Shown here: positions 7,254 to 29,399 of the stretch, one piece after another | How positions within the stretch are numbered: the stretch's first letter is position 1 | Layout: each line of letters begins with the position of its first letter | Assembly (NCBI GenBank): GCA_037893245.1 | Contig: JBAIAA010000778.1 | Span: 186,001-250,000, forward strand | Length of the DNA stretch: 64,000 bases | Direction of reading: 5' to 3' | DNA from: Crossaster papposus | Lineage: Eukaryota; Echinodermata; Asteroidea; Velatida; Solasteridae | Notes under the pieces: model-generated | The model's database searches: none | The model's input: the letters and a program-made list of their open reading frames with translations, nothing else | Told to the model about the DNA's origin: nothing | Made by a program: the position numbers and the translations under genes

Positions 7254-7257
7254 AAAG
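7254..7257. other. Target-site duplication, left copy (AAAG)
   Basis: AAAG immediately precedes the left terminus and recurs at 29396-29399 immediately after the right terminus. Joining the left satellite through this AAAG to the bases after the right AAAG gives TGTAAAGGGAAAGAAG, exactly the satellite consensus. That fixes the duplication at 4 bp. Confidence 0.88.
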
Positions 7258-7291
7258 AACACCTTCACATTTAATTGCTAAATTTCACATT
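7258..7291 (+). repeat. Left terminal inverted repeat (34 bp)
   Basis: It begins AACACCTTCACATTTAA and is an exact reverse complement of 29362-29395. Similarity stops at 7292 (GCGGCT, against TCAACT in the right end read inward). Confidence 0.95.
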
Positions 7292-7804
7292 GCGGCTAAA
7301 TTTGGAGAATGAATGCTCTCGTTTTGTTGTTTTTCAATGAAACCTGAACTAAGTAAATAATTTAAGCTGTTATTTACAAGTTAATTTTTCTCTCATTGAA
7401 ATGATCAAAAGGGGTGCACCTTTTTTGCATTACCTTTGATACAACCAGTATTTTCATTATTTAGGTGCCATTTGTTTTAAAGATGTCTCCTATCCCCCCA
7501 AAGTATTTAGACATTTATATTTTCAGGCATCTTTTTTGCTTTGTGTGTGTGACTATTCAGAGACAATGAAAACAACGCTATGAAAGTGAACACACAAGAC
7601 ACACTAGGTCAGTTCTCCGAACAGTTTGGATCTAGTAGAACTTTATTGTACTTCTTGTATTCAACTGAACAACAGGTGTCGCAAAACAAAACTTCAAGCA
7701 CATCAAATACAAACTTGTGTACATTTTACTATCGATCGCTATACCGCAATACATTTTAACAAACGTTTACACAAGACATAATGGACGTTGGGCTAGCTGC
7801 TACG
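7292..7804. other. Left terminal spacer, no gene seen
   Basis: About 510 bases of unique AT-rich sequence between the terminal repeat and the subterminal array. I see no convincing coding frame, RNA gene or repeat in it. It is not similar to the right-hand spacer at 28768-29361. Confidence 0.7.
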
Positions 7805-8474
7805 ACTAGGGACAGACTTGTCTAGCCCAAGCAAATGGTCTAAACTTATACTCAAACTAGGGACAGACTTGTCTAGCTCAAGCAAATAGTCTACAGTTAT
7901 ACTAGGGACAGACTTGTCTAGCCCAAGCAAATGGTCTAAACTTATACTCAAACTAGGGACAGACTTGTCTAGCTCAAGCAAATAGTCTACAGTTATACTA
8001 GGGACAGACTTGTCTAGCCCAACCAAAATGGTCTACACTTATACTCAAACTAGGGACAGACTTGTCTAGCTCAAGCAAATAGTCTACAGTTATACTAGGG
8101 ACAGACTTGTCTAGCCCAACCAAAATGGTCTACACTTATACTCAAACTAGGGACAGACTTGTCTAGCTCAAGCAAATAGTCTACAGTTACACTTAAACTA
8201 AAGACAGACCTAGCCCAGGCAAATGTCTATTAAAACTAGGGACAGACTTGTCTAGCCAAGCAAATTGTCAACAATTTAATATATTCAAACCGGGGACAGA
8301 CTTGTCTAGCCCAAGCAAAATTAGACCATTAGACCATTAGACCATTTGACCATTTGACCAGTGATTAGACCATTTAATGGTCTACAATATTACACTTAAA
8401 CTATAGGAACTAGACTTGTCTACCCCAAGCAAATGGCCGTCTGTAATACTCAAACTAGGTACAGACTCGAGACT
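7805..8474 (-). repeat. Left subterminal array of the 51-bp repeat
   Basis: About 13 copies centred on GGGACAGACTTGTCTAGC, at about 7811, 7862, 7907, 7958, 8003, 8054, 8100, 8151, 8200, 8240, 8293, 8410 and 8458. The first eight alternate 51- and 45/46-base spacings, giving a dimer of about 96 bp; copies after 8200 are degenerate. The orientation is the reverse complement of the array at 25155-28767. A 10-mer expansion of the AGACCATT part lies at 8321-8386. Each unit contains AGAC and GTCT arms around a 2-base centre, a plausible protein-binding site (inference). Confidence 0.92.
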
Positions 8475-8737
8475 TGTACGGCCTTGCAATTGAATTGTTC
8501 GAGACTTGCACCGATGTACCATTGTTTATCAAGGCTTCATTCAAGAAGAAAAAACAAACGAGAAATTGTACTAGTATAGACGAATTGATAGAAAATGACT
8601 CGAGTGATTGGACCCCTGTTTTAATGGGGCCGCAATTCACTTCCGACTCACGGGCCTCATTTAATTAAATGATTGTAAAAAGGTCTATGCGGCCACGCGC
8701 TTTTCTTGCTCCGGCGCGTGCGGCGCGGACATGTTAA
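8475..8737. other. Methyltransferase 3' flank, no gene seen
   Basis: Short unique region between the left subterminal array and the methyltransferase stop codon. An ATTAAA, a variant polyadenylation hexamer on the minus strand, falls within the ATTTAATTAAATG stretch near 8660. A GC-rich patch lies at 8690-8730. A plus-strand frame of 64 codons is open here, but nothing supports it as a gene. Confidence 0.5.
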
Positions 8738-8868
8738 TTATTCCTCGGTTCCAGCATCTGCATACAGTACGGACGTCAGCCGACGCTCAATCCACCGACA
8801 TTGCCCTTCGTCCATCTCTACAGCAATGCAGTTGCGTCCTTGAAGAAGGGAAGCAGTAATTCCAGTTC
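8738..8868 (-). CDS. Methyltransferase gene exon 11, end of motif I and stop
   Basis: 43 codons after a CACACAG acceptor: GTGITASLLQGRNCIAVEMD, then GQCRWIERRL and a TAA at 8738-8740. Joined to exon 10 it completes DACSGSGTG, with the downstream acidic residue (VE) that contacts the SAM ribose in this fold. It is separated from exon 10 by a 2.2-kb intron full of repeats. Confidence 0.88.
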
Positions 8869-11800
8869 CTGTGTGGGAAATGGAAACAATAAAATATACA
8901 TGCTGAATATTAATTTTCCCTACTAAAAAAATCCGCCAATGGACTAGGAACGAGTTTAAGAAAAGCAGCCTCAACACTTTTGTTTTCATCAATTAGGCCT
9001 ACTTTTCCTCAAACCTTAGGTCCCTAGATAAAATGTGTATTAGGCTCTAATAGTATTTAATATGCAGGCCTACTTCATATTTTCAACTGACAGTTAAAAA
9101 ACCGAAGGCACGTTGACGTGACCTGCGCTAAAAGCGTGTTTGTAAGCAGCGCATCATATCCACGTTGCGCGCGATGAAAAAAAGATAATTTACCCCTTCA
9201 AACTTATGGTCGAGTCCTCACACGTCACATGCACATGACCCGTACATATAGGTCATACCAAAGACCAGAGCGCCTACGTACGTCGCTCTTCGATCTTTGG
9301 GTCATACTAAGGCCGTGTCCAAAACGGGCTTCTAGAGCTACGGCTACGTATATTGTCAGCCTGCTCACGTGTATTTGTAACGGGCGAACACCTAGACAAT
9401 AGCCATAGACAAGAGATTCGGACGCGGCCATATCTTGAGAACGTTGCGTTGGTATGGCTCCTAAGCCAAATAATTATGACTATAGACGTATGGGGATTAA
9501 ATAAAATTATCACTCAAGGGAACCAGACTAAATTGTGCCACATGGCTAGCTCATCGGCTAGCTGCATGCAGATGCTGATCATTCATACGTGTTGCATTGC
9601 ATCATGGAGCAATAAACTACTCCATGATTGCATTAACGTCACCGGTTGGTGAGTAAAAACTCAGATTTTAAAATGGTCATTCAGATGAGATGGTCTATAA
9701 ATTCTCTCTGTGATGTGAGTCTAAGAGCTGTAGAACAGCATTACGTGCTGTTTTAGGAGGAAATATTTGAGAAAGTGGAATTCCAAGTCCAAACAAAAGC
9801 CAAACCCTTGTCCGACTAGCTACATCGCTATTTTTTTACATTTGGACATGATCTGGCGATATTATATTAGGGTCCTATAGGACTTCCGTTGGATATCTTA
9901 TCCTTACATCTCAATCAAAATTAGTACATGTAAATGACACTTTTTCCAATTGTTTACCCAAAGAAACATCAGATTTAAAACGGCGAGGCAGCTAGCTTGC
10001 GGAATTAAGCTATAATTTTTTTATCAGAATCGTAAGTAAACCTGTCCTTAGTACCCCAATCTTATTCGTCGATGTGTACTTGTAATTCAGATGGCTTATC
10101 AAGTACTTTTGAGGCCGTTTTGAGGGTGAAATCTGATGTTTCTTTGGGTAAACAAATGAGAAAAAGTGTCATTTTGATGAAATGTAATTGTAAGATATCC
10201 AATGGAAGTCCCTATACACATAGATAGAACCCTATCGCCAGTTCATGTCCATGTTAAAAAAAAGCGATGTAGGGTCCTAGTTACTCGGACTAGTCAAACC
10301 TAGACCCACTGGCACTGCGGCTGGCTTGCCTGGGGCCCCTATCCTCTTTTTATAAATTTTGGATTTAGCTTGTACTAGTACTAGAGCCCCACGCAAAACA
10401 ATACCCAATTGATATGCAAAATCTGTTACATGCAGCTCAATAAGTCGCCAAAACCATGACAATACTTAACAAAATACCTCCAAATAAATTGCCTAAATCG
10501 CCTTCTATATGAATTATGATATCAATCATGTGTCCAACTCCAAAAGATCAACTTCCAGGGCTTTGGTGATAGTCACAAACAATTCCTGACCTAGAGTGCA
10601 ATTCATGGTAATTCTGACAAATATGGTGGCCCTGACGTGACATAATCGGTGGTGAATATTTGTTTGCGACGTTGTGAATTTATTCACGAATGGTTTTAAA
10701 TATTTTTTGAGGCGTTATAATTTTTCACGACTTGGCATAAATACATTTGTGAAAAAATTCACAATGCCACAAATATTTACGACCAGTCGTAAATATTCAC
10801 GACAATGCAACAAAATCACAACAGATTATGCCCCGCCAGGATGCACCAGGCCACCAGATTCGTCATAATTTGGTTTCATTTTTATTTAAGATGGCAAGCA
10901 GCAACACAACAGTGAACACTACTTTGAATACCGTCGTCAAATTTCCTGAATTTGCAAGTCAGAAAATGTTCGCGAGTATCACCGAAACCGAAGTCCTGGA
11001 AGTTGATCTTGTACACATATGGAAGGCGATCTACAGTGACTTGGAGGTATTTTGTTAAGTATTGCCAGCGTTTTGGCGACTTTTTTGAGGTCTTACCTGA
11101 ACCACTGCAGGCATCCAGAACCCACCCACCACCTTGACACATAGCTGCAATCAGGTCTTGGAGCAGCTGAAGGGGTTTTTGATGTTCGTTGATGATCTGG
11201 CCATCATCATCTCTCTCAAACTTAGTGGGCTTGATATCCTTGATATCGTTGAAGAGATTAGATGTTGGTTTATTGAGCTGGTCTTGCTGTACCCGGCCAC
11301 TTGCAGACCAGTACGCGCATACCAATGCCCCAACATCTTGACTGAGCGTGAGTTCATGGCTCACTGAACCTGAGATTATAACAGAAAGATGACAAATGCT
11401 GCAGTGGTCCAAAAAGGATGCAAATGTCAAGAAATTAAATATAAACATTATATAGCCCTACGTAGAACTACGTTTTGACAAAGCTTATACTAGGGCCATA
11501 GACACTATGAGCTCTTTAACAATAGAAAGGCTGTTTCACCTGTAAAATACTGTACAATTGTTCTGGAGATTTCACGTTAATTTAACGGTGAAACGGAATT
11601 TGCTACTGTTAAAAAGCTCGCAGTGAGAGCTATATCTAATTAACAATTTTACTACCAAATTATTAAGAAATATCTTACTTGGAAAGCAAAATGATTGCGC
11701 TAGATATACTATAACTGTTTTAAAAAAAACCAAAGAAATGACATAAGAACCACTGCCTGACGCTGATTGAAAACAAATGCCGTATTTATTGCTTTTCTCA

Positions 11801-14800
11801 GTATTCATGATTGTAAAACTTCGGACAGGTCAGTCAAACGATATTTTCTATAAAATACAACCCCCCAAATCCACTCATTCCTGATAACTCAAGCAAATAC
11901 TAATGGTGTATCCTACCTGTAAATTTTTTGTGATTTGACACAAAATTGCCTAACGCATACAGTAAGCCTACATGATATATCACTTTAACACTTTGTGAAA
12001 AGCATATGTTGGCTCAGACTTTTAAGTTTTGGGACTCTCATCATACACAGTACATTGTATGTATGTACAATGTATTTAGAGTCCAAACTGTTTAGAATAA
12101 TGTACATGCCTACCTCTTTTGTAAAATGCCTTTTCTACTTTGCAGAAAGTCTCTGCCAGAAGAACCTTGTAGATGTCTTGCTGGCTCTCGATACTACAGA
12201 TGCATACGAGGTTGTACTTGGTTAGTGTCGATGACAGTTGCATGTTGACAAACCTCAACATGACACAAAACTTCTGCAGGTCTGTCATTGTCCATCCCTT
12301 AAGTATATAAATATAAACAGATGTGTACAATTGAAGTTTGCAAAAATAATAATCACCTCGACCTCATGTTATTATCCATTGTTCCGCCATACCAAAACAT
12401 GCCAGGAAAACAGCTATTGATAAGTTGCTGATAACATTGTAATGACTAAATTCTAACCTCTGTGATGTCGATAACTGCCAAACGGAAACCAGTGAAGTTT
12501 TTGGCCTTCTGCTTTATTACAGTGTCATCAACTTTGAGGACATCCATGTTGATGATGTATCCCAATGCTGAGCCATTAGGGCCAACGAATGCCCCAGCTA
12601 CTTCCCCACTGCAGGCAGGATCTTCTGTGTCAGCAACAGCCTGCATTGCTGATTTGGCAAAAGCTACCAGGGAAGCGGGTCTATTGCCATGCTGGAAATT
12701 GCATGTCAAAAAAGCCAGAAGTCTCTCCCGTGTGGTGTGATTGGGGTACTTGGCCACTGCTTCCAGCCAGGACTTCAGATTTGCTTCTCGCAAGAATGCA
12801 GCTTGAATGAGCTGTAATGACATACAGGTAGTTATTTGATTTGATGTTTATTTTCTTAACGAATCTGTGCAAATAGTGTTATCTTCAAGTTAATTTAGAT
12901 CTTTGATCCTGATTGGTCAATCCATGGCAACAAACCGTACTACTTATGTATAACTATGTCGATTTTTAACGGCCCATACTGCACTCCACACATTGCACTA
13001 TTCAAAGATGGGTGGGCCATTCCGTATAATATGAACAGTTTGTGTACAACGTTCATGTTCCATCCTTACTCTGCGTCTAGTTTGCTTATAGACAAATGTG
13101 TTGCCCCATCCACATTAATTGAGCACAAACTGTACTGTGTCCCACGTGGTATGTGGTACACAGATGCACTGCATTATATTTATTGTGTGTTCCATAATTA
13201 TAAGCACAAGTAGGATAAGTAATATTGTCCCCTTAAAGGTAGTATACACTATTTGCAAACATAAAAAACAAACCCATTAATTTATTATAAATGAAATACT
13301 TTACTTGGCTTAAGTGAATAACAGTCTCAAGCATCCTGTGAAATCACGGCACTTGGTCTCATGTGGTTTTCAAGAAAAGAGACATTGTTTTATCAATTTT
13401 AAATGATTGCCGGTCGGCAATCGTTGTAAAACCTTACTAATTTTAAACACTACCCCTAATTTATTAAAAGTATCTAAAGAAAGTCAAGGAACCATAATGC
13501 AAGAACAGCACCATTTTCTTAGTTTGTCCTGCTTCGATGAACACAAAACTGTAAAGTTATCAATTTAATGGCTGCATTCGGACAGTAGATACATGTAGTA
13601 GAAATATAATATTGCACCTCGTGCAAAGAGTATCTTTTGCCTTTTCATAATTGAATTACCTGCAGCTTATGTGCAATCTTTGTTTCCTTCTTGAAACTCT
13701 TCAGATGTATCTCTCCACTCTCAAGTTCAGCAAGAACATCCGACTGAGATTTCTCGTCAAGGAGGACAAAGTGCCTGAAGGTGATCGGGCTGATACCTGC
13801 AGTACCACATTTTCTGTCATCCGAGCCAAGTTTCTGACCCTGGATCTCACCACGCCTGGCCAAGTCAAGAATGCGATCCAAGGTGCTTTACACGTCACCA
13901 GAGGTAGCAGCCAGTTGCAAAATGATGTTTGTGTCTAGTTTACTCTGAAACAAAACAGAATACATGTATAGCAAACTACATGTTTGAAACTTTAACATTT
14001 TGTTCTTCATGAGTAAAATTATATAAATCAATTTTTACAGTGAAATCACAGTAATTATGACACAAAAACAAATTTCTCAGCATTTTTCAATGTTTTAACC
14101 AGTTCGTGTCAGATGACGTAAACAAAATATTTCCAAGATTCAAAACTGACGACTGCTAAACACATTACAGGCTAAGCCGGAAATATCTGTCTGCAGCGAG
14201 CAAGGCCAGAAATACCTGTCAGCAGCAAGCAAGGCCGGAAATATTATGAGTGTGCTTGCCTGAACTTGTTTTGTGAAAAAGAATCCTACACCCGGTCAAT
14301 ACCAAAATAATCCTGAGGCGAACTGGTTAAACAAACTAGCAACCCTCTGGTTTACCTTTTCCTTTAAGATACCAGCACAAATCTTCTTCCAGTCACTGCC
14401 CTTGAAGTTTTTGCAGAAAGCTATCTGTTGTGATAAATTAAACCCTTTCAGTATTCATATGTGGAGGCGTGAATATGTAAACACTGGCAACCGTGGACTA
14501 GGTTAGGGCATAAACAAAGAGTCCACGATTGACTGATCAACCACGTTTGAAAAATCGTGTACAAAACATATGGGAGGCCATCCAAAAGTACAAACAAAAA
14601 AGGGACAATAGGGGGTCCATGATTGCTGGTGTTTACACACACATCAATCACTCAATCTCTGAAAAATTCACTCTAAAAGGTCTAAAAAGTACAAATGACA
14701 TTGATATTATATTGTTTGTTTTTGTTATTTATTATATTTTTATTCTACCTTGTCCTTTAGATCCATGGGCTTATGAAAGTTGTGGGTACGATTGTGTCGA

Positions 14801-15785
14801 TGTGACAGCCACATAATCTGTTCGTGAGTCATTTCTGCATAGACAACACACCACCGGCTTTCATGGAAGAGAGTTGGATCCTCCAGTTTCAGCTCTTTTG
14901 AAGCTGCAATAAGGTGCTGTCCACCAAGAACAGTGTACCTGTAGTCTTTCACCTGAAACAAACAGTACAATATGTTGCTGTAGCACTGGTGTTAAACACA
15001 TTTGATTGGCTCCAAGTCCTCCAACCCATCAATTTTCCTGAAATGAGGCTTTCTGACGTCACGCTTTGTTTACATGTGTGCTTTTCTTTGACTCTCATAG
15101 GAAAGTGTACATGTAAAAAGTTTTCATTTCGGCTTATCATGCAATTCTGAATTTTAACTTTAACTCATTTTAGAAAATGTACCTAATTTGTACTATCAAG
15201 AATATCATAAGCATGTTTTGTTTTAGTACGTGTTCATTCTATGCTGTGAATCTGACTATGAATTTCTCAGTTTAGTATTAACAAATTTACCTTTTGACTA
15301 TCAAATTCAGACAGAGAGATCCCTTCGGCATAGGCGCATACTGGTTGGTAGCACTCGTCTGAAAACTTCCTTAGCTCTGTCTTCAGGGCCTCAACGAAGT
15401 GCACGTCAATAGGACGAATTTGTTGGCCAATTTGTAGGCTTTCAATGTTAATCTTGAAGTGGCCTTTAAAAACAAAAAATTAAGTAAAGCAATCAGCATT
15501 GGAATTGTCACAGAGTGAAATTATAGACAATGATGTGGGGGGGGGGGGACTGACATAAAGTGGATATTTCCTTGTTTTGTGTCATAAGGTTTTAAAGCAT
15601 ATGCAGTATCAAGAAGTTTCTTTACTTGGGTCGTGATTTTTACAATTGACATAAACAAAAATGACTCGACTCTAAAGTACAATTGTGTTTCACCAAAAAT
15701 TGATTATATACCCAGCACAATATGAGACTGAGGGACTCTCCCCCTAGTCCCCCATACCTATACACTCTCTAGACTATTGTTACAA

Positions 15786-15820
<35 letters not shown>

Positions 15821-17146: not shown

Positions 17147-18117
17147 TATTTAATGATGTTATAAAATGCCTCAAGGTTGGGAAAAGTACACAAGCTAGGC
17201 CTATCCGTAGAGCTAGCTGCAGTGTTCTGCATTAATATGCATACTAGTACTACTACATGTACTACTACTAGTGCTGCCTGGTTGTGTTATAAAAATAGAT
17301 AGGGGTGCAAATTTGCCCTCTTTTCAATATCCCGCCAATTTTGACAACTTGGACGATGCTGGAACCGGGGAGGAGGGATTCGGTATGACTTTTGCAGAAC
17401 ATAATATTTGTATTTCTTTACTTTACAATGAACGCCTTTAATAGCGATTCTGTTGTAATCATTTTTGCTCTCTATCTTATTTACTTCTTTGAAACAACAA
17501 TCGGACTATTTCCATCGTTTTTATTTCGCAAGATGTTCCTGTGTTAATTACCGCCCTGTTGGAAAAATGGTTTGGTCCACCGGCCTTGTTTTGTTTTGTT
17601 TTCTTCAGAGTTGCAAACTGGTATCCAGCGGTCCAGACAATGTTATTGTAACACTCCAATATAGAAACCAGTTAAATGTAATCTACGTACGCACGCACGC
17701 ACGCACTTACTTACAACTAACTTACATACGAACATGACGTACGGCTGGCTGGGCTACTGCGCCGGGCGGCCCGTATACATTTGCTAGCGTTCGCTATATT
17801 CAACTTTCCCCGGCGTGTGGATGGTTTAGGGCTAACGTTATAGTTGTATTTGTGGGGTTCAAGACCCTGACAAAGTGTCCATTTCAACTGAACCAGATGA
17901 CTCTTTTTGTTTGATCCTCTTTGTTTTCGTAAAACGTAAACATACGGTATACCGCGAGCAGTGACTGTAGCCTAGCTAGGCTATGCCTAACTTACTGTCA
18001 CTTTGTCAGTGTCAGTCACTGTTTCCAATTTCATGATGATGTTGAGCCTGAGGCAGCTGTTTTTGTAACTTCCGACCATAGGAGTGAAGCTCAACGCTAA
18101 TGTTAGTATGATTCACG
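17147..18117. promoter_or_regulatory. Shared intergenic region between the divergent genes
   Basis: About 970 bp separate the two start codons, so this region probably holds both promoters (inference). It includes a TATAAAAATAG box-like word at 17288 on the plus strand, a short (ACGC)n run near 17688-17706, and a GC-rich patch at 17758-17775. A decayed copy of the downstream first exon (17841-18100) is also present. No other gene is evident. Confidence 0.5.
17841..18100 (+). pseudogene. Decayed duplicate of transposase-gene exon 1 start
   Basis: It aligns with 18129-18350. TTGTGGGGTTCAAGACCCTG matches TTGTGGGGTTCAAGACTCTG, GTCCATTTCAACTGAAC matches GTCAATTTCAACTGAAC, and TCATGATGATGTTGAGCCTG matches TCATGATGATGTTGAGCCCG. 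The spacing differs by about 43 bp between the two ends. The copy has no intact frame or start, so it reads as a relic of a local tandem duplication of the first exon. Confidence 0.8.
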
Positions 18118-18764
18118 ATGAGTGTATATAGTTTTATTTGTGGGGTTCAAGACTCTGAAAAAGTGTCAATTTCAACTGAACAAGATCATGAAGATGACTT
18201 TTTTTATTTGGATGATGACCCAAGCTCGTACTTAAGCCATACTGCAAGCAGTGTATGCCCAACTGTAGGTTCTCATGATGATGTTGAGCCCGATGCAGCT
18301 GCTTTTGTTACCTCCAACCATGGTTGTCAAGTGAAGCCCGACTCTATCATTAGGAATTTCCAATTACCAATCGACAACAAAGTTGAAATTAGCTTTAAGG
18401 TTTACTCACAGTCGTGTTGTAATAGCGACTGTGTAGTTGACTTTTCTCCTAACGAAATATGGTGTCTGCACACATCTTTCAATGAGAAAACAGAATCTCA
18501 ACAGAAACGGTACTTGGTACAGTGTTGGAGAAACAGGCCTTCAGAGACAGCACCTAAACGCCCAAGAAAAAGATCATACAGTGACGATGGGGATCATGAG
18601 ACAGACTGCAAGCCTGGGTTTGTTTTGAATGGCAGATGTGTGTGTGACTCAGCATTTTGCAAGCTGCAAGGGCTGAGCCAATTTAAGTTCAAGTCTGCAA
18701 AAAGGGCATTCGATAAAGGCCTCATCATCTCCACCCATGGTAACACAGGAAAGACTGCACTAAG
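18118..18764 (+). CDS. Transposase-like gene exon 1
   Basis: 215.7 codons starting MSVYSFICGVQDSEKVSIST. A short acidic stretch (EDDFFYLDDD) is followed by a basic patch, then CKPGFVLNGRCVCDSAFC and HGNTGKTALR. The donor is CTAAG|GTAAGA, phase 2. The first 225 bases have a decayed copy just upstream. Confidence 0.88.
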
Positions 18765-21700
18765 GTAAGATAGAGCCTCAGAGGCCTAAAATAGTTTTCA
18801 GTTTACTTTTGGGGTTATCGAGTTTAAGACAGAATGATTGCCATACAAATTTAAATAAATCAATTTATTTGCAGCAGCACATAGTATACGTCATACGGCT
18901 AGGCTTAGGCTATAGCTTGAGATTTCCAGCTCTAAAATAGCTCATGAAAGGGTCAAAACTATTGTGCACTTCCCTCGAAAAACAAACGGACCGTTGTTGA
19001 ATGTTTGTTACTGTGGTACCACTTCTCACCGGTACGGCGGGTCTGAAGGTGCACCAGACATTCAACAGCCACTTGGCAAAACAACAGTGAAAGTGTTATA
19101 TAGCAAATTCTTAATTATTCAATTTGTAATCTAGAATGCTTTCTCTTTTGCAGAAATAAAACATCACAGTGCTTAGCATGGCTGCGTTTCTTCTTGGAGC
19201 GTGTTGGTGACTACATGCCCCACAAAAATAAGGTCTACCTTCCACCATCATGCAATTACACTACAGTGTATGGGAGAATGAGTAAAGAGCTAAAGGATCG
19301 GAACATGGAAGTAATTTCTTATGGACACTTCCTCAGGATTTGGCATGCAGAACTGTCAGAGTTTGTGGTTGGAAAAGTAAGTTTTTCTGTTGACAGTTGA
19401 ACCCTGATATACATGTAGTGTTACTGTAACATCCTGCTTAAGTCTTTGAGTGTTTTTCTTTGTTTTTCATTACTGATAATACAAGGTACCTTAAACAAGG
19501 TAATTTATAAAGTCCCACTCACCTTTTTAAGTCCTAATCACCTTGATAAGTAAAATGGTTAGTACTAAAATTGCATAAATAGGCACCATCGACCATTATA
19601 GTTTTTAAATTATTTTAATTTTGTAACATACTACAGCAGTATATATTCCAAAAACTTGGGACTCCCATTACTGTTTATTGATAGCCCCAAAACATGCAAC
19701 ACAATAAAATAGACTGGCACATGAAACAATCCGTATCAGACCTTTGAAGAGATCAGTCTGGTCAAATAGATGGACAATTGAAGGACACACATGAGTCTAG
19801 TCAAGATTGGTCTTTAAAATAAAACCATGTGCCATGGTGTGGCTTTACTCTTGAAGCAAAATGTTGAAGAAAACTAAATTAAAAACAAAATTTTGTTAAA
19901 ACTTAATTTTAATAATTGATATGAGACTTTAGACTTGGCCTAGCTCATGAAACATTTTGAGAATTTTATCAGCTAAAAAGTGAGTAAAGTTGGCCTGAAC
20001 TTTGTTTGCATGATTTTCAGCACTCCATATTGCACAGACCACCAGCAATTTTCTTGATAATATGACAGTTATTAATAATGTCCACATCCCCAGGTCAGCT
20101 CTTTTACAAAGTGCAGCATCTGTACAACTCTAAAAGAAGACAGGCAAACATCCACAACTAAAAGTGAACGGGCTGCTGTGCAGGAGTTGCATGATTTGCA
20201 TATCAAGCATGTGGAGTAAGTACTGTATAGTATCCCAGGTTAGAAACAAAATAGAGAAACAATATATTTCGTTCCTATTCAAAATGTTGGGTTTTTTTTT
20301 CTATTTTTTTCATTGTATTTCGCCACCGTGAAAAATAAGGCACAACAAATAAAGGAAACAAATTGCTTTTTTTTTTAATAGAGGTAAAATAGGTTTCAAT
20401 TTTTTTTTAATAGGATGCTATTTTCAAAACAGTCTTTGAATTTTTGAAAAATGTCTAATTCAGAGAAAATAGAAACACCCAAAAGTACATTAAGAAAGTG
20501 TGGCTTTTCAAAATAGTAAAATTGCAGCATCCAAAAATAGAAAAATAAAATAGTGTATCGCAGTCCATTTAGTCCTCGGAATAGGAAAACAATATATTTG
20601 CTTACTATTTTCTGAGCGAAGATTGCATAACAATGTTTTAAATAGACATCAAAAGATGGGGTTTTTATTAGAAGATAAAAAAGAAATCAGAAAGTGAAAA
20701 CAATGCATCATGTAGCGTACATAGAAATACATGTAACAGCATTATATATTTATAAAAAACATCAGCCTTTGGCAAAGACTAAATTATTATACATGCCTGC
20801 AAGGTTATTTGTTCAAATTAGTCTCCAAAAACAATGCCTTATTTTTTTCCAAGGTTGTCTCGTAGACATTACCATGACAGCAGAGAACGGGCAAGGGCAG
20901 ATCCGTCTCTTGAAAATACTATCATCATAGACGGAATGGACCAATCAAAGACAAACATGCCGAGCTTGCTAGTGGAAGACAAAACAACAAAGGGCAAAGC
21001 GCGTCTCCGAACACATCTTACAGGTATAATTTTGTTGGGAAAGAATTATATACCTGGACTTGACAACCTGTGCACAAACCGTATGAGACTGTTGTAAACA
21101 TTGGGGTATATCCTACACAGGGAACACTTAATTTGCCCATTATTTCATTTTTTTGGACTAATCACTAATCTTATGTTTAGGCCTGAATAAATAAATTCTT
21201 GATTCTGTATAAAAAAAAGGTACCGGGTAGCTATTTTTCTCAATTTTATGTAGCTACAAATGTCCTCTTGAGCCATTATGACTATTTCTGTTTTAACTGA
21301 TGGTGGTGGCCTGTGTCACATACATTTAACTGTTCATTATATTTACCTTCTTATACAGGTGTCCTCTTTCACACCGACACTCCTGGAGGAATGATACCCT
21401 ATGTGTTTACAGACATTCTTAATGTACCCCACGATAGCAACCTGACTCTGAATGTTCTTCTCCAAATCATTGCAGAGAATGGAGACAGACGATCGAGGGC
21501 AAAAACTAAATGTTCAGGTACTGTAGTCAGTTAATTTTGAATAATTATTCATTATTATATAGCAAAAACATTCTTCTTGTACCTACTGTTTTTGTATCAC
21601 TCATTAATTTGTCTTGAAAAAGATACTGCCAGAATCCCAAATTCTAGGCCCTATTTGTGTTTTTTAATGAATTTGACATTAATACACAGTATATGTGGCC

Positions 21701-24117
21701 TATACATGTAGGCGAATTATTAAACTTACAACGTCATACTTGCTATTGTATGACAGGCCGTTTTCCCATTTGACTTACCTTGACATGACTTTGTTTTACC
21801 TAGATTTATTGTCCTAATAGCTGGCAGGAATGTCGCACATGGCTGGCGCTGATAATTTTCTGCGACTGAGCGGAAACTTTCTGCGGCCACTTTCGGCTTG
21901 GTAGTTTTATATAACCTTTACGTTAAGTCAATTAAATAGTAGGTATTTTGTGTACTTGCAGATGGACAATTGCTACCGAGAAAACAAGAATAAATTCATC
22001 TTAGCAGTTGGTGTCCTCTTGGTAGAATTTGGGATATACAACCAGGTACTGTAGGTGTTGCTTGAGTGAAGTTGTAGTACTGATAGTTTTGTTACATTAA
22101 AAAGTTTGTAAGAGATTATCACCATGTGTGAAGACGATTGGTGATAAAAGACAACAACATTTACTCGCTAGCCTTTTCGCCTCAAAATTGTTTTACGTTC
22201 ACCTACTGTAGACTGGCACCTTGTCGCACAGATAAAATGCATCTTTTTAAAAGTGCCTTTTGTTATTACAATACAACCACGCAAAGTTTAAAATCGTTTC
22301 AATACTATATAGTGTTATTCATTATATATTGTAAAACAGTACACTCTCATTTAATAATTTTAGAGGCGTCCTAAAATTGATGAAATGCCAAAAAGGGTTC
22401 TTCCAAGCCTGGAAAAGATTGACCCCAATCTTCAAAACAACTTGAAGGCATTTGGGAGAAGGCTGCCTGACCATGCCCACAACTGGTGGAAGCACTTCTT
22501 CACTCAGATGGACAAATACACAACAGTAAGTCAATCCCGTTATTATGATGTCATGTGCTAGTAGCTCAGGAGCTCACTAATCAAAAATGTGGTTGGTCGC
22601 TATTAAACAAGTATGTCTAAAACCTGCTCATATGGGCCTGAACATTGTTAATGGACTTGCTGCTACTTGTCAACCGGCCAACTATATTTGTACAAAACCA
22701 ATGAGAGCCGTCGGAAAAAGTACAAACAAAGAAAATCATCGAGAGGAACAAAAGAAACTCCTCGATTTACACCATAAACAAACGTGAGTGCACGTGTTTA
22801 TGTTAATAAGGCTTTTTTACCAGCATATACTGAATCCATCAGAATCTTTCATTTTTTTCCCTGGTGTTATTTTTTATTCAGCCATCCGATGAAACATCAG
22901 GTACTTGGCTGCTGCAGACCCTGATCAATTTACCAAACCAACCAAGACCACTGCCAGATCTTAGCCACCTTGAAGGCACTAGTGATGCCATTCGGCAGGA
23001 CTGCCCTGAGGTTAGTTAGCATTAACGACACACTTGTTTGGCTTTTTATTTTGAAACCTTTGCATATGTTAAACATTTATATTTTACCCCCATATTTTGT
23101 TTTTGAGATATCATACGTAACTCAATAATTAGTGAATAACAGTGCGAGGACCCGGTCATTACTGCGTGATAATGACCGGGTTGGGGAATGACCGCTGGTA
23201 ATGGACCGAGCCTAACACCCCGCACTGTTATTCCATTTAATAAATACCTTTAATATATACCAACATTTCCAGTGTTTTGTGTTCATGCATCAGGGCCTAA
23301 ATTTCAGCTATATGCATGGTACCCTGTCTCTTCAATATGTGTTTTTATTATTACCCATACTTTGAGACCAGACTAGCTGACTACTGATGCCCACTGTGCA
23401 TAGCAAAGCGTTAGCGTTAACAGACGAAACGCGCATTTTTTTAAAAGCCGCGCGTATAGATACAAATGTTTTACGTGTACATTCATAGTTACCGTAGGAC
23501 TTTTGCATTCGGCCAATCATTGACTTAAATGATGCTTGATTAATGCTGGTTCAGGGGACATTTATTCGCTTTTTCTTAAAAGCCAGGCAATTACTACAAA
23601 ATAATGCCCTCCATATATGTGATAGTCTCGACCAATCAGAAGCCATCAACTCTCCTAGGTATTTATTAATACAAATTAAATATACAGTTTACCCAATCCT
23701 ACTGATGAATTAATTGTTCACATTTTGTATCTCTTCTTCTAGATAATTGTTGGACCTCCAGCAAAGAAGACCATCTTAGGAAATCAAGACTATGCCTCTA
23801 TCACTGTTGGCATGCTGGTAGCTGTTTTTGTGGCTGATATTTCCCATCATCCTCAGATTGGTAGAGTTGAAGCAAGAGAGGATCACTGGATGAATGTCCA
23901 TTGGTTTTCTGGCCAGTGGACTTCATCCTGGAAACCTTGCTTTCATGGTGCCGGTAAACACAGAAAGCCTGCTACAGAATGGCTAGATGAAAAATGTGCC
24001 CTTCTTTGGGACTTTCAACTCACAACAAAAAATGCAGCTTTGACAAAAATGGTTCAAACTGACTTGCGAAACAGGTATGCAGAGTGCCAAAGTGCAGTCC
24101 TCGAAAACGATACGTAA
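18118..24117 (+). CDS. Putative transposase (D...DN RNase-H-like family), 9 exons
   Basis: Nine exons encode about 690 residues. An acidic N-terminus and basic patch (PKRPRKRS, about 144-151) are followed by a Cys-rich segment (CKPGFVLNGRCVCDSAFC) and an HGNTGK motif. Next come CSIC (297-300), IIIDGMDQSKTNMP (D357, D360) and YLQMDNCYRENKNKF (DN near 442). The C-terminus, IGRVEAREDHWMNVHWFSG then SSWKPC, resembles a chromo-like barrel. I recall the same order (CxxC, hhhDgmDQsK, LQxDN..ENKN, then GHTHxDhD) in a large uncharacterised metazoan family, annotated DUF7869 in recent Pfam. It looks like a DDE-type integrase fold, so transposase is the natural role inside this element (inference). Oddities: exons 5 and 6 do not join in frame, and no GHTHxDhD equivalent is found between exons 6 and 7. 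The start is the first Met after an in-frame TGA. Confidence 0.78.
19154..19376 (+). CDS. Transposase-like gene exon 2
   Basis: From TTTTGCAG to GGAAAA|GTAAGT. It encodes NKTSQCLAWLRFFLERVGDY and continues KVYLPPSCNYTTVYGRMSKE to HFLRIWHAELSEFVVGK. The phase agrees with both neighbours. The W....LsEf segment leads into the CxxC exon. Confidence 0.88.
20094..20215 (+). CDS. Transposase-like gene exon 3, CxxC motif
   Basis: From CCCCAG to GTGGA|GTAAGT. It encodes VSSFTKCSICTTLKEDRQTS and then a helical ERAAVQELHDLHIKHV. The FxKCxxC plus charged helix arrangement is typical of the family I compare it with. Confidence 0.88.
20854..21023 (+). CDS. Transposase-like gene exon 4, first acidic motif
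   Basis: From TTTCCAAG to CTTACAG|GTATAA. It encodes ELSRRHYHDSRERARADPS, then IIIDGMDQSKTNMPSLLVED. The hydrophobic strand ending in D357-G-M-D360 is the expected first catalytic strand of an RNase-H-like fold. Confidence 0.9.
21359..21517 (+). CDS. Transposase-like gene exon 5
   Basis: From CTTATACAG to AATGTTCAG|GTACTG. It encodes GVLFHTDTPGGMIPYVFTDI, then HDSNLTLNVLLQIIAENGD. The segment is family-like right up to the DN strand. The donor leaves phase 1, which no acceptor in front of exon 6 can take up in the right frame; a GTAGTC donor at 21524 would give phase 0. Confidence 0.8.
21943..22045 (+). CDS. Transposase-like gene exon 6, DN motif
   Basis: It encodes YFVYLQMDNCYRENKNKFIL and continues AVGVLLVEFGIYNQ to a CCAG|GTACTG donor. 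The frame is open back through YLQ, which the family normally has before DN, so I start it at the TAGTAG acceptor. The TTGCAG acceptor at 21962 would start directly at MDN. The 5' boundary is uncertain. Confidence 0.72.
22364..22525 (+). CDS. Transposase-like gene exon 7
   Basis: 54 codons from TTTTAG to ACAACA|GTAAGT. It encodes RRPKIDEMPKRVLPSLEKID, then GRRLPDHAHNWWKHFFTQMD. Phase 0 at both ends. The exon that should precede it with the third acidic motif is not found. Confidence 0.82.
22882..23010 (+). CDS. Transposase-like gene exon 8
   Basis: 43 codons from TTATTCAG to CCTGAG|GTTAGT. It encodes PSDETSGTWLLQTLINLPNQ, then PRPLPDLSHLEGTSD. A proline-rich linker between the catalytic core and the C-terminal domain; phase 0 at both ends. 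Confidence 0.82.
23135..23234. repeat. Hairpin-forming repeat (intron 8)
   Basis: Outer arms GAATAACAGTGCG and CGCACTGTTATTCC enclose an inner palindrome ACCCGGTCATTAC / ATAATGACCGGGT. Its left arm resembles 24218-24245 (ATTACAGTGTGATGACCCGG), suggesting one repeat family. Confidence 0.75.
23626..23670 (+). repeat. Dispersed 43-bp motif, copy 1
   Basis: CTCGACCAATCAGAAGCCAT and CTAGGTATTTATTAATA recur at 24811-24853, and more degenerately at 24738-24783. All copies share orientation. Confidence 0.75.
23743..24117 (+). CDS. Transposase-like gene exon 9, chromo-like C-terminus and stop
   Basis: 124 codons plus TAA, from CTTCTAG. It encodes IIVGPPAKKTILGNQDYASI, then IGRVEAREDHWMNVHWFSG, SSWKPC, and a closing helical region WDFQLTTKNAALTKMVQTDL. 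The V...D..hhVHWF.G...W.P pattern is that of a small chromo/SH3-like barrel, which in related proteins precedes a conserved F.LT..kL helix. Confidence 0.88.
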   Translation: MIVGPPAKKTILGNQDYASITVGMLVAVFVADISHHPQIGRVEAREDHWMNVHWFSGQWTSSWKPCFHGAGKHRKPATEWLDEKCALLWDFQLTTKNAALTKMVQTDLRNRYAECQSAVLENDT

Positions 24118-24156
24118 CAAGTTTTATCACTGTGTTTCAGTTTAATATACAAATAT

Positions 24157-24205
24157 TGACTGCTTCGAGTGGTATAGTTTTACTATACCACGTGATAAGC
24201 AGTCA
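24157..24205. repeat. 49-bp palindrome downstream of the transposase stop
   Basis: TGACTGCTTCGAGTGGTATAG pairs with CTATACCACGTGATAAGCAGTCA read inverted, around a TTTTA centre; a few mismatches. It lies 40 bases after the stop and could act in 3' processing or be a small foldback repeat. Confidence 0.8.
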
Positions 24206-24246
24206 TTATTTATGTAATTACAGTGTGATGACCCGGTTATTACTAA

Positions 24247-24374
24247 GGGAATAAATGTGTGTTCGGGAGGTTTTAATCACTCTGTTTAATACCGCTTGGA
24301 GTCTATGTGCTGATAATTACCCGAGCCGATAATTACCAGAGTGATTAATACCGACCGAACACACATTTATTCCC
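24247..24374. repeat. Inverted repeat with 20-bp perfect arms
   Basis: GGGAATAAATGTGTGTTCGG at 24247-24266 is the exact reverse complement of 24355-24374. An inner pair, TAATCACTCTG / CAGAGTGATTA, extends the foldback. MITE-like, with no coding sequence. Confidence 0.85.
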
Positions 24375-25154
24375 ATTCAAAAATACCTTTTTTGTAAAAT
24401 TCAGCCAAAAAAGCCCCGAAAAAAATTGTCGCAAGTAAATTTCGGTGTTTCCCAAATGACATGTTTCCGCCTCTGTCGCTCTACACAGTACTTGCAATAA
24501 AGCGTATTTACTAGGAACCAGACCATTACTGCCATTGGCAACCTCGTTCCCAGGGTGTCGAGTTGTACGCGCCCAACACCATGCGTTTTACTATTGGAGA
24601 TGATGTACGGTTGGAAATAAAGTGAGCCCTGGGGACGGGTATAATGCGACATCGCGTGACGTATTTTGTTGCCAGCTGGTTTTAAACACTTCCAGCCATG
24701 TCTTTATCGTCCGTTTAATACCAGCCACGTGACGGGCTCTCGACCAATAGGAATGCCTAAACTGTCCCAGGTATTTATGAATACATAATAATCCACTCCA
24801 CGTGATCAAATCTCGACCAATCAGAAGCCAGCAACTCTTCTAGGTATTTATTAATTGTTTTATAACACCTCTCCCACAGATTCTGCACAATTTATGCTAA
24901 ATCTAAAAGTAATGACACTCAAATTCATTGATCAAATTAAACCGTAGTAAAATTTAATTAAAAAATCTCTATGGAAACAAATGTTTTAGGGCATAAAATA
25001 TTTGCACATTGTCAGTTCGCATATTTTCCTGGTGTATTAGGTAAAGTGTCCTGCAGGTTCTTATATGAGATGAGGATTCTCCATGAGAAACCTGACCCTC
25101 TTGTGTCGGGTGCAATGAGTGTTCCGCTGGTTCTTGATGAGATGGGGATTCTGC

Positions 25155-28100
25155 CCCTAGTTTGAGTATAATTGCAGACCATTTGCTTGGCTAGACAAGT
25201 CTGTCCCTAGTTTGAGTATAATTGCAGACCATTTGCTTGGGCTAGACAAGTCTGTCCCTAGTTTGAGTATAATTGCAGACCATTTGCTTGGGCTAGACAA
25301 GTCTGTCCCTAGTTTGAGTATAATTGCAGACCATTTGCTTGGGCTAGACAAGTCTGTCCCTAGTTTGAGTATAATTGCAGACCATTTGCTTGGGCTAGAC
25401 AAGTCTGTCCCTAGTTTGAGTATAATTGTAGACCATTTTGCTTGGGCTAGACAAGTCTGTCCCTAGTTTGAGTTTAATTGTAGACCATTTGCTTGGCTAG
25501 ACAAGTCTGTCCCTAGTTTGAGTATAATTGCAGACCATTTGCTTGGGCTAGACAAGTCTGTCCCTAGTTTGAGTATACTTGCAGACCATTTGCTTGGGCT
25601 AGACAAGTCTGTCCCTAGTTTGAGTTTAATTGTAGACCATTTGCTTGGCTAGACAAGTCTGTCCCTAGTTTGAGTATAATTGCAGACCATTTGCTTGGGC
25701 TAGACAAGTCTGTCCCTAGTTTGAGTATAATTGCAGACCATTTGCTTGGGCTAGACAAGTCTGTCCCTAGTTTGAGTATAATTGCATTTTATTTGCTTGG
25801 GCTAGACAAGTCTGTCCCTAGTTTGAGTATAATTGCAGACCATTTGCTTGGGCTAGACAAGTCTGTCCCTAGTTTGAGTATAATTGTAGACCATTTGCTT
25901 GGCTAGACAAGTCTGTCCCTAGTTTGAGTATAATTGCAGACCATTTGCTTGGGCTAGATAAGTCTGTCCCTAGTTTGAGTATAATTGCAGACCATTTGCT
26001 TGGGCTAGACAAGTCTGTCCCTAGTTTGAGTTTAATTGTAGACCATTTGCTTGGCTAGACAAGTCTGTCCCTAGTTTGAGTATAATTGCAGACCATTTGC
26101 TTGGGCTAGACAAGTCTGTCCCTAGTTTGAGTATAATTGCAGACCATTTGCTTGGGCTAGACAAGTCTGTCCCTAGTTTGAGTATAATTGCAGACCATTT
26201 GCTTGGGCTAGACAAGTCTGTCCCTAGTTTGAGTATAATTGCAGACCATTTGCTTGGGCTAGACAAGTCTGTCCCTAGTTTGAGTTTAATTGTAGACCAT
26301 TTGCTTGGCTAGACAAGTCTGTCCCTAGTTTGAGTATAATTGCAGACCATTTGCTTGGGCTAGACAAGTCTGTCCCTAGTTTGAGTATAATTGCAGACCA
26401 TTTGCTTGGGCTAGACAAGTCTGTCCCTAGTTTGAGTATAATTGCAGACCATTTGCTTGGGCTAGACAAGTCTGTCCCTAGTTTGAGTTTAATTGTAGAC
26501 CATTTGCTTGGCTAGACAAGTCTGTCCCTAGTTTGAGTATAATTGCAGACCATTTGCTTGGGCTAGACAAGTCTGTCCCTAGTTTGAGTATAATTGCAGA
26601 CCATTTGCTTGGGCTAGACAAGTCTGTCCCTAGTTTGAGTATAATTGCATTTTATTTGCTTGGGCTAGACAAGTCTGTCCCTAGTTTGAGTATAATTGCA
26701 GACCATTTGCTTGGGCTAGACAAGTCTGTCCCTAGTTTGAGTATAATTGTAGACCATTTGCTTGGCTAGACAAGTCTGTCCCTAGTTTGAGTATAATTGT
26801 AGACCATTTTGCTTGGGCTAGACAAGTCTGTCCCTAGTTTGAGTATAATTGCAGACCATTTTGCTTGGGCTAGACAAGTCTGTCCCTAGTTTGAGTTTAA
26901 TTGTAGACCATTTGCTTGGCTAGACAAGTCTGTCCCTAGTTTGAGTATAATTGCAGACCATTTGCTTGGGCTAGACAAGTCTGTCCCTAGTTTGAGTATA
27001 ATTGTAGACCATTTGCTTGGGCTAGACAAGTCTGTCCCTAGTTTGAGTATAATTGCAGACCATTTGCTTGGGCTAGACAAGTCTGTCCCTAGTTTGAGTA
27101 TAATTGCAGACCATTTGCTTGGGCTAGACAAGTCTGTCCCTAGTTTGAGTTTAATTGTAGACCATTTGCTTGGCTAGACAAGTCTGTCCCTAGTTTGAGT
27201 ATAATTGCAGACCATTTGCTTGGGCTAGACAAGTCTGTCCCTAGTTTGAGTATAATTGCAGACCATTTGCTTGGGCTAGACAAGTCTGTCCCTAGTTTGA
27301 GTATAATTGCAGACCATTTGCTTGGGCTAGACAAGTCTGTCCCTAGTTTGAGTTTAATTGTAGACCATTTGCTTGGCTAGACAAGTCTGTCCCTAGTTTG
27401 AGTATAATTGCAGACCATTTGCTTGGGCTAGACAAGTCTGTCCCTAGTTTGAGTATAATTGCAGACCATTTGCTTGGGCTAGACAAGTCTGTCCCTAGTT
27501 TGAGTATAATTGCATTTTATTTGCTTGGGCTAGACAAGTCTGTCCCTAGTTTGAGTATAATTGCAGACCATTTGCTTGGGCTAGACAAGTCTGTCCCTAG
27601 TTTGAGTATAATTGTAGACCATTTGCTTGGCTAGACAAGTCTGTCCCTAGTTTGAGTATAATTGTAGACCATTTTGCTTGGGCTAGACAAGTCTGTCCCT
27701 AGTTTGAGTATAATTGCAGACCATTTTGCTTGGGCTAGACAAGTCTGTCCCTAGTTTGAGTTTAATTGTAGACCATTTGCTTGGCTAGACAAGTCTGTCC
27801 CTAGTTTGAGTATAATTGCAGACCATTTGCTTGGGCTAGACAAGTCTGTCCCTAGTTTGAGTATAATTGTAGACCATTTGCTTGGGCTAGACAAGTCTGT
27901 CCCTAGTTTGAGTATAATTGCAGACCATTTGCTTGGGCTAGACAAGTCTGTCCCTAGTTTGAGTATAATTGCAGACCATTTGCTTGGGCTAGACAAGTCT
28001 GTCCCTAGTTTGAGTATAATTGCATTTTATTTGCTTGGGCTAGACAAGTCTGTCCCTAGTTTGAGTATAATTGCAGACCATTTGCTTGGGCTAGACAAGT

Positions 28101-28767
28101 CTGTCCCTAGTTTGAGTTTAATTGTAGACCATTTGCTTGGGCTAGACAAGTCTGTCCCTAGTTTGAGTATAATTGCAGACCATTTTGCTTGGGCTAGACA
28201 AGTCTGTCCCTAGTTTGAGTATAATTGTAGACCATTTGCTTGGGCTAGACAAGTCTGTCCCTAGTTTGAGTATAATTGTAGACCATTTGCTTGGGCTAGA
28301 CAAGTCTGTCCCTAGTTTGAGTATAATTGTAGACCATTTGCTTGGGCTAGACAAGTCTGTCCCTAGTTTGAGTATAATTGTAGACCATTTGCTTGGGCTA
28401 GACAAGTCTGTCCCTAGTTTGAGTATAATTGTAGACCATTTTGCTTGGGCTAGACAAGTCTGTCCCTAGTTTGAGTATAATTGCAGACCATTTGCTTGGG
28501 CTAGACAAGTCTGTCCCTAGTTTGAGTATAATTGCATTTTATTTGCTTGGGCTAGACAAGTCTGTCCCTAGTTTGAGTATAATTGCAGACCATTTGCTTG
28601 GGCTAGACAAGTCTGTCCCTAGTTTGAGTTTAATTGTAGACCATTTTGCTTGGGCTAGACAAGTCTGTCCCTAGTTTGAGTATAATTGCAGACCATTTGC
28701 TTGGGCTAGACAAGTCTGTCCCTAGTTTGAGTATAATTGTAGACCATTTGCTTGGGCTAGACAAGTC
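25155..28767 (+). repeat. Right subterminal array of the 51-bp repeat
   Basis: About 70 tandem units of 51 bp with cores TAGTTTGAGTATAATTG, CAGACCATTTGCTTGGG and CTAGACAAGTCTGTCCC, inverted relative to 7805-8474. Variants include a 50-bp unit with one G fewer (CTTGGCTAG), TTTAATTGTAG units, CATTTTATTTGC units and CCATTTTGC units. The array decays at its right edge (GTCGTTTCTTAGTTTGAATA). Open frames on both strands arise because 51 is divisible by three and the unit lacks stops. A role as transposase-binding sites is inferred from position and orientation. Confidence 0.95.
26076..27805 (+). repeat. 865-bp higher-order repeat within the 51-bp array
   Basis: The order of variant units repeats with a period near 865 bp (17 units). 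Blocks starting at 26076 and 26941 match in sequence of variants, and 27806 begins a third, partial block. CATTTTATTTGC marker units fall near 25786, 26649 and 27512. This shows block duplication rather than single-unit growth. Confidence 0.8.
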
Positions 28768-29361
28768 GTTTCTTAGTTTGAATACACTCGACGATTTAAA
28801 GATATATTTCATTTCGATGATGCTGTCATTTCTTTGTTGTCCAAGTTAGTTGGCGAGTGACACTTTTTGTTGCAACTGCTTTGTATTTTACTGTATTTGT
28901 GTTAACTATTCTGAAAGAAATGCATGTTTTAACAATTAGTTTAAACATGAGAATCTTTTTGACAAAGGATGCCTTTAAACCGATTAGTTTATCGGAAGGA
29001 GATAACAAAAGAGAAAATGCAACTTAAACCAATAAAAGAAATCAGTTTCAATCAATGATAAATAGTTTGTCTGTCTCATTAATAAAAGTTTGCTTTCATT
29101 CTGAAGAAAGTAGTCCTAATCTTTTTGATAGCTTAAAAAACGAGTTTGCTCGATATCTAAATGAAAATAATTTGGGATTGAGACTGTCGGCATCGTAAAG
29201 TTTATTATGATTTAAATTCAGTTTGATAAAAAGGTGCTGTATATTCATAACTTTATTTTCAGTAAAGCACAATATTGAGAATATGGTGCTTCACTTTTAT
29301 ATATTCTTGTAAAATTTCCTTAAAATCAACAATTTCATGCTCTAATTACTACAAAAGTTGA
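28768..29361. other. Right terminal spacer, no gene seen
   Basis: About 590 bases of unique, very AT-rich sequence between the right array and the terminal repeat. No convincing coding frame, RNA gene or repeat. It is not similar to the left spacer. Confidence 0.65.
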
Positions 29362-29395
29362 AATGTGAAATTTAGCAATTAAATGTGAAGGTGTT
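29362..29395 (-). repeat. Right terminal inverted repeat (34 bp)
   Basis: Exact reverse complement of 7258-7291, ending GTGAAGGTGTT. The next bases are AAAG, the target duplication, and then satellite. Confidence 0.95.
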
Positions 29396-29399
29396 AAAG
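29396..29399. other. Target-site duplication, right copy (AAAG)
   Basis: Second copy of AAAG, followed directly by GGGAAAGAAG-type satellite in the phase expected if one array was split. Confidence 0.88.

What the first reader, a model, noticed from the sequence alone, without database searches (positions are those of the whole stretch)
7258..29395. Giant DNA transposon with inverted subterminal arrays and a DNA methyltransferase cargo
The insertion has 34-bp perfect terminal inverted repeats, a 4-bp AAAG duplication, mirrored 51-bp tandem arrays at both ends, and two divergent intron-containing genes. One gene is transposase-like; the other is a ParB-like/DNA methyltransferase fusion. I do not know a described animal element with this combination. 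A self-encoded methyltransferase could mark the element's own DNA, protect it, or modulate transposition (inference).
Basis: partly seen in the sequence, partly recalled or inferred. Interest (0 to 1): 0.93.

Follow-up and report, generated by a model that had tools for sequence, protein, structure and literature searches.

The report
Giant sea-star jumping gene, methyltransferase-like passenger
A 22-kb jumping gene, apparently from a sea star, carries next to its transposase a second, evolutionarily preserved protein that looks like a bacterial DNA methyltransferase but has lost the usual catalytic signature; similar passengers are in print from giant jumping genes of algae.

Summary
Window 7258-29395 is a 22,138-bp DNA transposon with perfect 34-bp TIRs, a 4-bp TSD (AAAG), mirrored ~51-bp iteron arrays and two divergent multi-exon genes. 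It is a real family: 7 of 10 distinct two-ended loci examined have matching 4-bp TSDs. One insertion's empty site is present at 100% identity over 440/440 bp. Gene B is a DUF7869 protein whose modelled core resembles DDE integrases and transposases; its best hit is a Patiria miniata protein (98%). Gene A is an old, stable component: 16 loci, dN/dS about 0.09-0.18 between subfamilies.

(1) The window copy is probably dead: gene A has an in-frame stop; gene B loses frame and lacks its GHTHEDVD exon. (2) Gene A keeps the AdoMet-binding half of an N4/N6 amino-methyltransferase, but in every subfamily read motif IV is D-[FI]-[PT]-[EM], not DPPY, so 'marks its own DNA' is unproven. (3) The ParB label has only weak support. 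(4) The idea is not new: a 21.5-kb Ectocarpus Sola1 transposon carries a ParB-like/MTase gene opposite its transposase. This is an animal variant of that kind.

The parts
7254..7257 (.). 4-bp target site duplication AAAG, left
7258..7291 (+). 34-bp terminal inverted repeat, left
7805..8319 (+). left subterminal iteron array, ~51-bp unit, 10.6 copies; core GGGACAGACTTGTCTAG 10 forward, 0 reverse
8738..17146 (-). gene A (11 exons: 17146-16934, 16475-16228, 16072-15972, 15463-15291, 14952-14749, 14424-14356, 13944-13660, 12811-12458, 12297-12114, 11369-11097, 8868-8738); accessory protein with N4/N6-methyltransferase-like C-terminus
8738..12811 (-). methyltransferase-like region of gene A (exons A8-A11); motif I DACSGSGTG at the A10/A11 junction; altered motif IV (DITE-GW) at the A8/A9 junction
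13888..13890 (-). in-frame stop codon in exon A7 of this copy; absent from the 11 other loci in which A7 was compared (the identical C1077 copy not counted)
14356..15463 (-). ParB-like region of gene A (exons A4-A6, invariant VLGGxHL), label weakly supported
18118..24117 (+). gene B (exons read: 18118-18764, 19154-19376, 20094-20215, 20854-21023, 21359-21517, 21962-22045, 22364-22525, 22882-23010, 23743-24117); DUF7869 transposase-like gene; frame lost after exon 5 in this model, and the GHTHEDVD exon and the one after it (present in C553) have no match in the element
25150..28781 (-). right subterminal iteron array, 71.3 copies of 51 bp, inverted relative to the left array (70 reverse, 0 forward cores)
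29362..29395 (-). 34-bp terminal inverted repeat, right
29396..29399 (.). 4-bp target site duplication AAAG, right

Best explanation
A giant cut-and-paste DNA transposon family of a sea-star-like genome, with 4-bp TSDs and a Sola-like layout. Gene B encodes the DDE-type transposase that acts on the 34-bp TIRs. Gene A encodes an element-borne accessory protein that binds DNA, most likely at the mirrored ~51-bp iteron arrays (through its ParB-like or other N-terminal part), and carries an AdoMet-binding amino-methyltransferase fold. Its altered motif IV makes ordinary N6A/N4C methylation doubtful, so I favour a structural or regulatory role: pairing or protecting the ends, or countering silencing, as VANC proteins do on VANDAL tandem repeats. 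The window copy is an inactivated member that keeps TIRs and arrays and could still be moved in trans. Shown: insertion with TSDs across the family, gene linkage at several loci, purifying selection, loss of the canonical motif, damage in this copy. Inferred: iteron binding, the role of the AdoMet pocket, anti-silencing, mobilisation in trans.
Against: Iteron binding by gene A is untested. No Pfam ParB match in any of 6 members, and the only PHROG hit named ParB-like has E 0.011 in 1 of 6. Foldseek gave no PDB match at E <= 0.001. 3 of 10 two-ended loci (C691, C251, C833) have no matching TSD. Exon A2 in C537 lacks an AG acceptor where the window has one, so no fully intact gene A was shown. 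C890 has both ends, a TSD and a DUF7869 exon but no A8 match, so gene A may be dispensable in cis. dN/dS window-C693 is 0.65: recently relaxed. The distant dS values are near saturation.
Confidence: 0.6

Rival explanations
1. Gene A is an active N6A or N4C methyltransferase with an unusual motif IV (D-F-P-E/M-x-W) that marks the element's own DNA, as proposed for the algal ParB-MTases.
For: The AdoMet motif DACSG[ST]GTG and the C-terminal half are conserved in 6 of 6 aligned subfamily sequences. First D invariant, P present in 4 of 6, and a W two residues on invariant. The algal proteins are interpreted this way in PMC12477816.
Against: No [DNS]PP[YFW] in gene A exons of the window, C537 or C553 (its hits lie elsewhere). 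The aromatic fourth residue is replaced by E or M in 6 of 6 aligned copies.
Confidence: 0.25
2. Gene A is a captured host or bacterial gene carried as inert cargo.
For: The MTase part matches bacterial and phage enzymes. No relative was found in two protein searches.
Against: Present in subfamilies only 57-60% identical, under purifying selection, and opposite a DUF7869 gene at the loci where both were seen.
Confidence: 0.08
3. The element is an assembly chimera or a one-off insertion rather than a mobile family.
For: The window copy sits in a satellite array, and the one full-length identical copy found (C1077) has the same left flank (2,003 of 2,003 bp).
Against: Other copies at unrelated flanks with their own TSDs, and an empty site.
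Confidence: 0.02

Closest known systems
Sola1-1_Ec32 giant transposon of Ectocarpus (Dinatale et al. 2025, PMC12477816; abstract, passages and part of the reference list seen)
   Same: 21.5 kb; transposase plus, on the opposite strand, a protein with ParB-like and N4/N6 DNA methyltransferase domains. [quoted passage not shown] 2011 and Petroll et al. 2025, which I did not see).
   Different: Brown alga, not animal; 1104-aa protein against about 744 aa here. Its catalytic motif, arrays and TSDs were not available to me; no sequence comparison was possible.
Sola superfamily (Sola2 passages in Bao and Jurka 2013, PMC3627910)
   Same: 4-bp TSDs; TIR-bounded DNA transposon; passenger proteins (Fanzor) known.
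   Different: Sola2 TIRs are 12-21 bp in the passages seen. Curated bivalve Sola1 averages 5,445 bp (PMC10294476, passages). Homology of DUF7869 to Sola transposases was not tested.
VANDAL elements with VANC (PMC5735166, passages)
   Same: Transposon-encoded anti-silencing protein whose DNA targets often form tandem repeats in the element.
   Different: Plant element; VANC is unrelated to methyltransferases as far as I recall; its role is tested, this one's is not.
[quoted passage not shown]
   Same: DNA transposon carrying a methyltransferase gene.
   Different: Virus-borne, mariner transposase, other methyltransferase families, with an endonuclease.
Retrotransposons with cytosine DNMTs (PMC5890265, search listing with start of abstract only)
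   Same: Eukaryotic transposon encoding its own DNA-methyltransferase-family protein.
   Different: Retrotransposons and C5-cytosine enzymes of dinoflagellates and charophytes.

Membership tests
DDE/RNase H-like DNA transposon | Terminal inverted repeats and a fixed-length TSD in several independent insertions | tested here: met
   TIR pattern 20 matches against 0 control; 4-bp TSD in 7 of 10 distinct two-ended loci examined; empty site
DDE/RNase H-like DNA transposon | Transposase with RNase H-like core and acidic triad | tested here: met
Sola superfamily (Sola1/Sola2) | 4-bp TSD | tested here: met
   the rule for Sola2 taken from PMC3627910 passages
Sola superfamily (Sola1/Sola2) | Transposase homologous to Sola transposases | not testable with these tools
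   No Repbase/Dfam; no paper in the library names DUF7869
ParB-MTase accessory proteins of giant algal transposons | Encoded opposite the transposase inside the element | tested here: met
   Window; opposite-strand DUF7869 exon at 6 further loci in a truncated list; not examined at the rest
ParB-MTase accessory proteins of giant algal transposons | N4/N6 DNA methyltransferase domain | tested here: met
   PF01555 43.1 bits against cut-off 26.7, C-terminal half only, 5 of 6 members; PHROGs 6 of 6
ParB-MTase accessory proteins of giant algal transposons | ParB-like domain | tested here: inconclusive
   No Pfam ParB hit in 6 of 6; PHROG ParB-like E 0.011 in 1 of 6; invariant VLGGxHL resembles the ParB box (recalled)
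Catalytically canonical amino-methyltransferase (N6A/N4C) | AdoMet motif I | tested here: met
   DACSG[ST]GTG in 6 of 6 aligned sequences
Catalytically canonical amino-methyltransferase (N6A/N4C) | Motif IV [DNS]PP[YFW] | tested here: not met
   DITE, DFPE or DFPM in 6 of 6 aligned copies; no match in gene A exons of 3 copies scanned. The placing of motif IV rests on a by-eye alignment to a phage enzyme.

The most novel reading that the evidence does not exclude
An animal transposon family has kept under selection a repurposed, non-canonical methyltransferase fused to a ParB-like module that loads onto mirrored, almost CpG-free iteron arrays. It would be a partition-like or VANC-like complex that clusters the two ends or holds off silencing, without ordinary base methylation.
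Probability: 0.3. Interest if true: 0.85.

Novelty: new variant of a known kind. Interest (0 to 1): 0.62.

Why it matters
It extends transposon-borne methyltransferase-family accessory proteins, in print from algal giant transposons, to an animal. It adds three testable features: long-term selection on the accessory gene, loss of the canonical catalytic signature across the subfamilies read, and mirrored subterminal iteron arrays that are a ready candidate binding site. If gene A binds the iterons, the system is a handle on how animal transposons counter silencing or synapse ends more than 20 kb apart. If instead it methylates, it would be a concrete source of the disputed 6mA/4mC in animal DNA.

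Tried and rejected
Relatives of gene A among 5.8 billion proteins: none, with one spliced sequence (7,996 candidates scored) and with a six-sequence alignment (7,995). The method needs shared 5-residue words and similar length, so absence is not shown. Viral contigs: 32 pattern matches, 0 confirmed. ParB by tblastn: phages 1 hit at E 7, in no plausible ParB frame of an unannotated record; plasmids none. PDB profile for A4-A6: best matches apolipoprotein at E 0.14 and above. Gene B's first part gave TIR_3 and Tudor_Coilin matches below the Pfam cut-offs: ignored. Not run because the search machine was busy: a PF01555 scan of the whole genome (six attempts: 117, 119, 121, 127, 130, 131), a gene B linkage scan (six: 115, 118, 123, 126, 129, 132) and the C553 empty site (one: 113). 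Ten paper searches turned up no animal ParB-MTase transposon in the lists shown; most subscription journals are outside that library.

Full report
WHAT IS THERE. The window is G000:C778:186001-250000 of a 1.02-Gb, 1,841-contig assembly. Outside 7258-29395 it is covered by a 31-bp satellite. The insertion is 22,138 bp long, with 34-bp perfect TIRs and an AAAG duplication. Joining the two flanks with one AAAG gives 160 bp of satellite in register with one mismatch, so the insertion point is exact. Subterminal arrays of a ~51-bp unit (10.6 and 71.3 copies) face each other. The core GGGACAGACTTGTCTAG, up to 2 mismatches, is found 10 times forward on the left, 70 times reverse on the right and not at all in the 16.7-kb middle. 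CpG observed/expected is 0.05 and 0.006 in the arrays against 0.61 in the body; since the arrays repeat one CpG-free unit, this is one fact, not many.

IT IS A MOBILE FAMILY. The 34-bp end has 20 genomic matches at up to 3 mismatches, the reversed control 0; a 20-bp core at up to 2 mismatches has 52 against 3. I examined 10 distinct loci with two facing ends. Seven have matching 4-bp duplications: window AAAG, C967 AGTT, C537 AGCA, C553 ATAT, C890 ATAT, C90 ATCT, C214 CTTG. Three do not: C691 and C251 and C833; whether their ends belong to one insertion is not shown. Sizes of the seven run from 595 bp (C214) and 1,098 bp (C90) to 29,051 bp (C553). An eleventh place, C1077, is identical to the window copy over 22,138 bp with the same 2,003-bp left flank and 803 bp of right flank before divergence. 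I count it as the same insertion (haplotype or duplication). The joined C537 flanks match two places on contig C552 at 440/440, 100%, and 38 further scored places at 92-96%; these are empty sites in a repeated host segment. C537 and C553 are two insertions at different sites whose gene A has no synonymous difference in 738 codons, a sign of recent transposition. The 8,047-bp C967 copy keeps TIRs and both arrays but, of the 20 exons searched, only A11 of gene A, as expected of a deletion derivative if ends and arrays are what is needed in cis.

GENE A. Eleven exons with GT-AG introns encode about 744 residues. Exons A8-A11 carry the C-terminal half of Pfam N6_N4_Mtase (43.1 bits, cut-off 26.7; 5 of 6 subfamily members). 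6 of 6 match a PHROG DNA methyltransferase, and PADLOC lists type II methyltransferases. hhalign gives 95.8% probability to one phage adenine methyltransferase over motif I and its neighbours. Exon A8 has 17 matches at 16 loci, 57-100% identical, with stops at 2 loci. dN/dS is 0.18 (window against C537, 740 codons, dS 0.60), 0.09 (window-C691, 384 codons, dS 2.5), 0.14 (C537-C691, 385 codons, dS 1.7) and 0.13 (C889-C1581, 348 codons, dS 2.1). The last three are near saturation, and other distant pairs were saturated and gave no ratio. Window-C693 gives 0.65, fitting recent decay. In a truncated list a DUF7869 exon lies on the opposite strand 10-17 kb from A8 at 6 loci: C537, C553, C599, C691, C854, C299. 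With the window and C1077, that is 8 of 16 loci shown; the rest were not examined. C890 has ends, a TSD and a DUF7869 exon but no A8 match.

THE CATALYTIC MOTIF. The position that should read [DNS]PP[YFW] reads DITE-GW in the window and C537 groups, DFPE-GW in C691, DFPE-SW or -NW in C192, C1581 and C889, and DFPM-DW in C854 and C463; in C299 the frame is broken there. A related phage enzyme reads DIPY there; that placement is by eye, as MAFFT put its gap elsewhere. Motif I and the conserved lysine and acidic residues remain. So the AdoMet pocket looks preserved while the usual catalytic tetrapeptide is absent. The window copy also has an in-frame stop in exon A7, absent from the 11 other loci in which A7 was compared, the identical C1077 copy left out. 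In C537 the A2 acceptor is not AG, so I show no copy as wholly intact.

PARB. Only weak support: no Pfam ParB match in 6 members; DUF6551 at E 0.0027 and a PHROG named ParB-like at E 0.011, each in one member, beside unrelated families of similar E-value. The invariant VLGGxHL resembles the ParB box (recalled). The label gains weight mainly from the algal architecture.

WHAT IS KNOWN. In Dinatale et al. 2025 (PMC12477816; abstract, passages and part of the reference list seen) the 21.5-kb Sola1-1_Ec32 carries, opposite its transposase, a 1104-aa ParB-like/N4-N6 methyltransferase. [quoted passage not shown] Its references 50 and 51 I saw only as listed. Methyltransferases in virus-borne mariners and 4-bp TSDs of Sola2 are in Bao and Jurka 2013 (PMC3627910, passages). 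VANC proteins, whose targets often form tandem repeats, are in PMC5735166 (passages). Ten paper searches gave no animal case in the lists shown. Placement in Sola is consistent with the TSD but the transposase was not compared, so I do not file it as a Sola1.

JUDGEMENT. The element and the family are certain. A stable accessory role for gene A is very likely. The mechanism (iteron-binding, AdoMet-dependent or AdoMet-sensing cofactor rather than an ordinary methylase) is my best guess at about 0.6, with the active-enzyme rival at 0.25.

Noticed in passing
window 1-7257 and 29396-64000: About 42 kb of a 31-bp satellite (GGGAAAGAAGTGTGCATAAGAAATATGTAAA), interrupted in places by a 36-bp block containing AACACATGATGTGGGAACAAGCCCTCGAGTT.
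   Followed up: no
L018 and L019 (C537 copy, element positions about 17882-23986): A large inverted pair of 80/160-bp tandem arrays (unit with TTTTCTCCGAGTGCCAACAGTGAAGTC) inside the C537 element; no such array was reported in the window copy.
   Followed up: no
G000 C537:672448, C553:1837289, C400:503416, C599:1411026: A TIR-like 20-mer (AACACCTTCACATTTAATCG, one mismatch) near gene A; in C537 it falls in the intron between exons A4 and A5.
   Followed up: no
G000, many contigs (e.g. C890:832480, C151:204444, C119:1863688): DUF7869 has at least 177 matches in this genome, many on contigs without a gene A match: probably other DUF7869 transposon families.
   Followed up: no
G000 C90:2160965-2162062 and C214:282390-282984: Short, MITE-like elements (1,098 and 595 bp) with the same ends and matching 4-bp TSDs.
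   Followed up: partly
L023, C833:201330-203952: A 2,623-bp element with related ends and no 4-bp TSD, but flanks that are nearly inverted repeats of each other (CAATGTTACGTA / TACGTTACATTG).
   Followed up: no
G000 C537 and C552: A host segment with at least 40 copies (92-100% identical to the joined flanks) on two contigs, which holds the C537 insertion and its empty sites.
   Followed up: no
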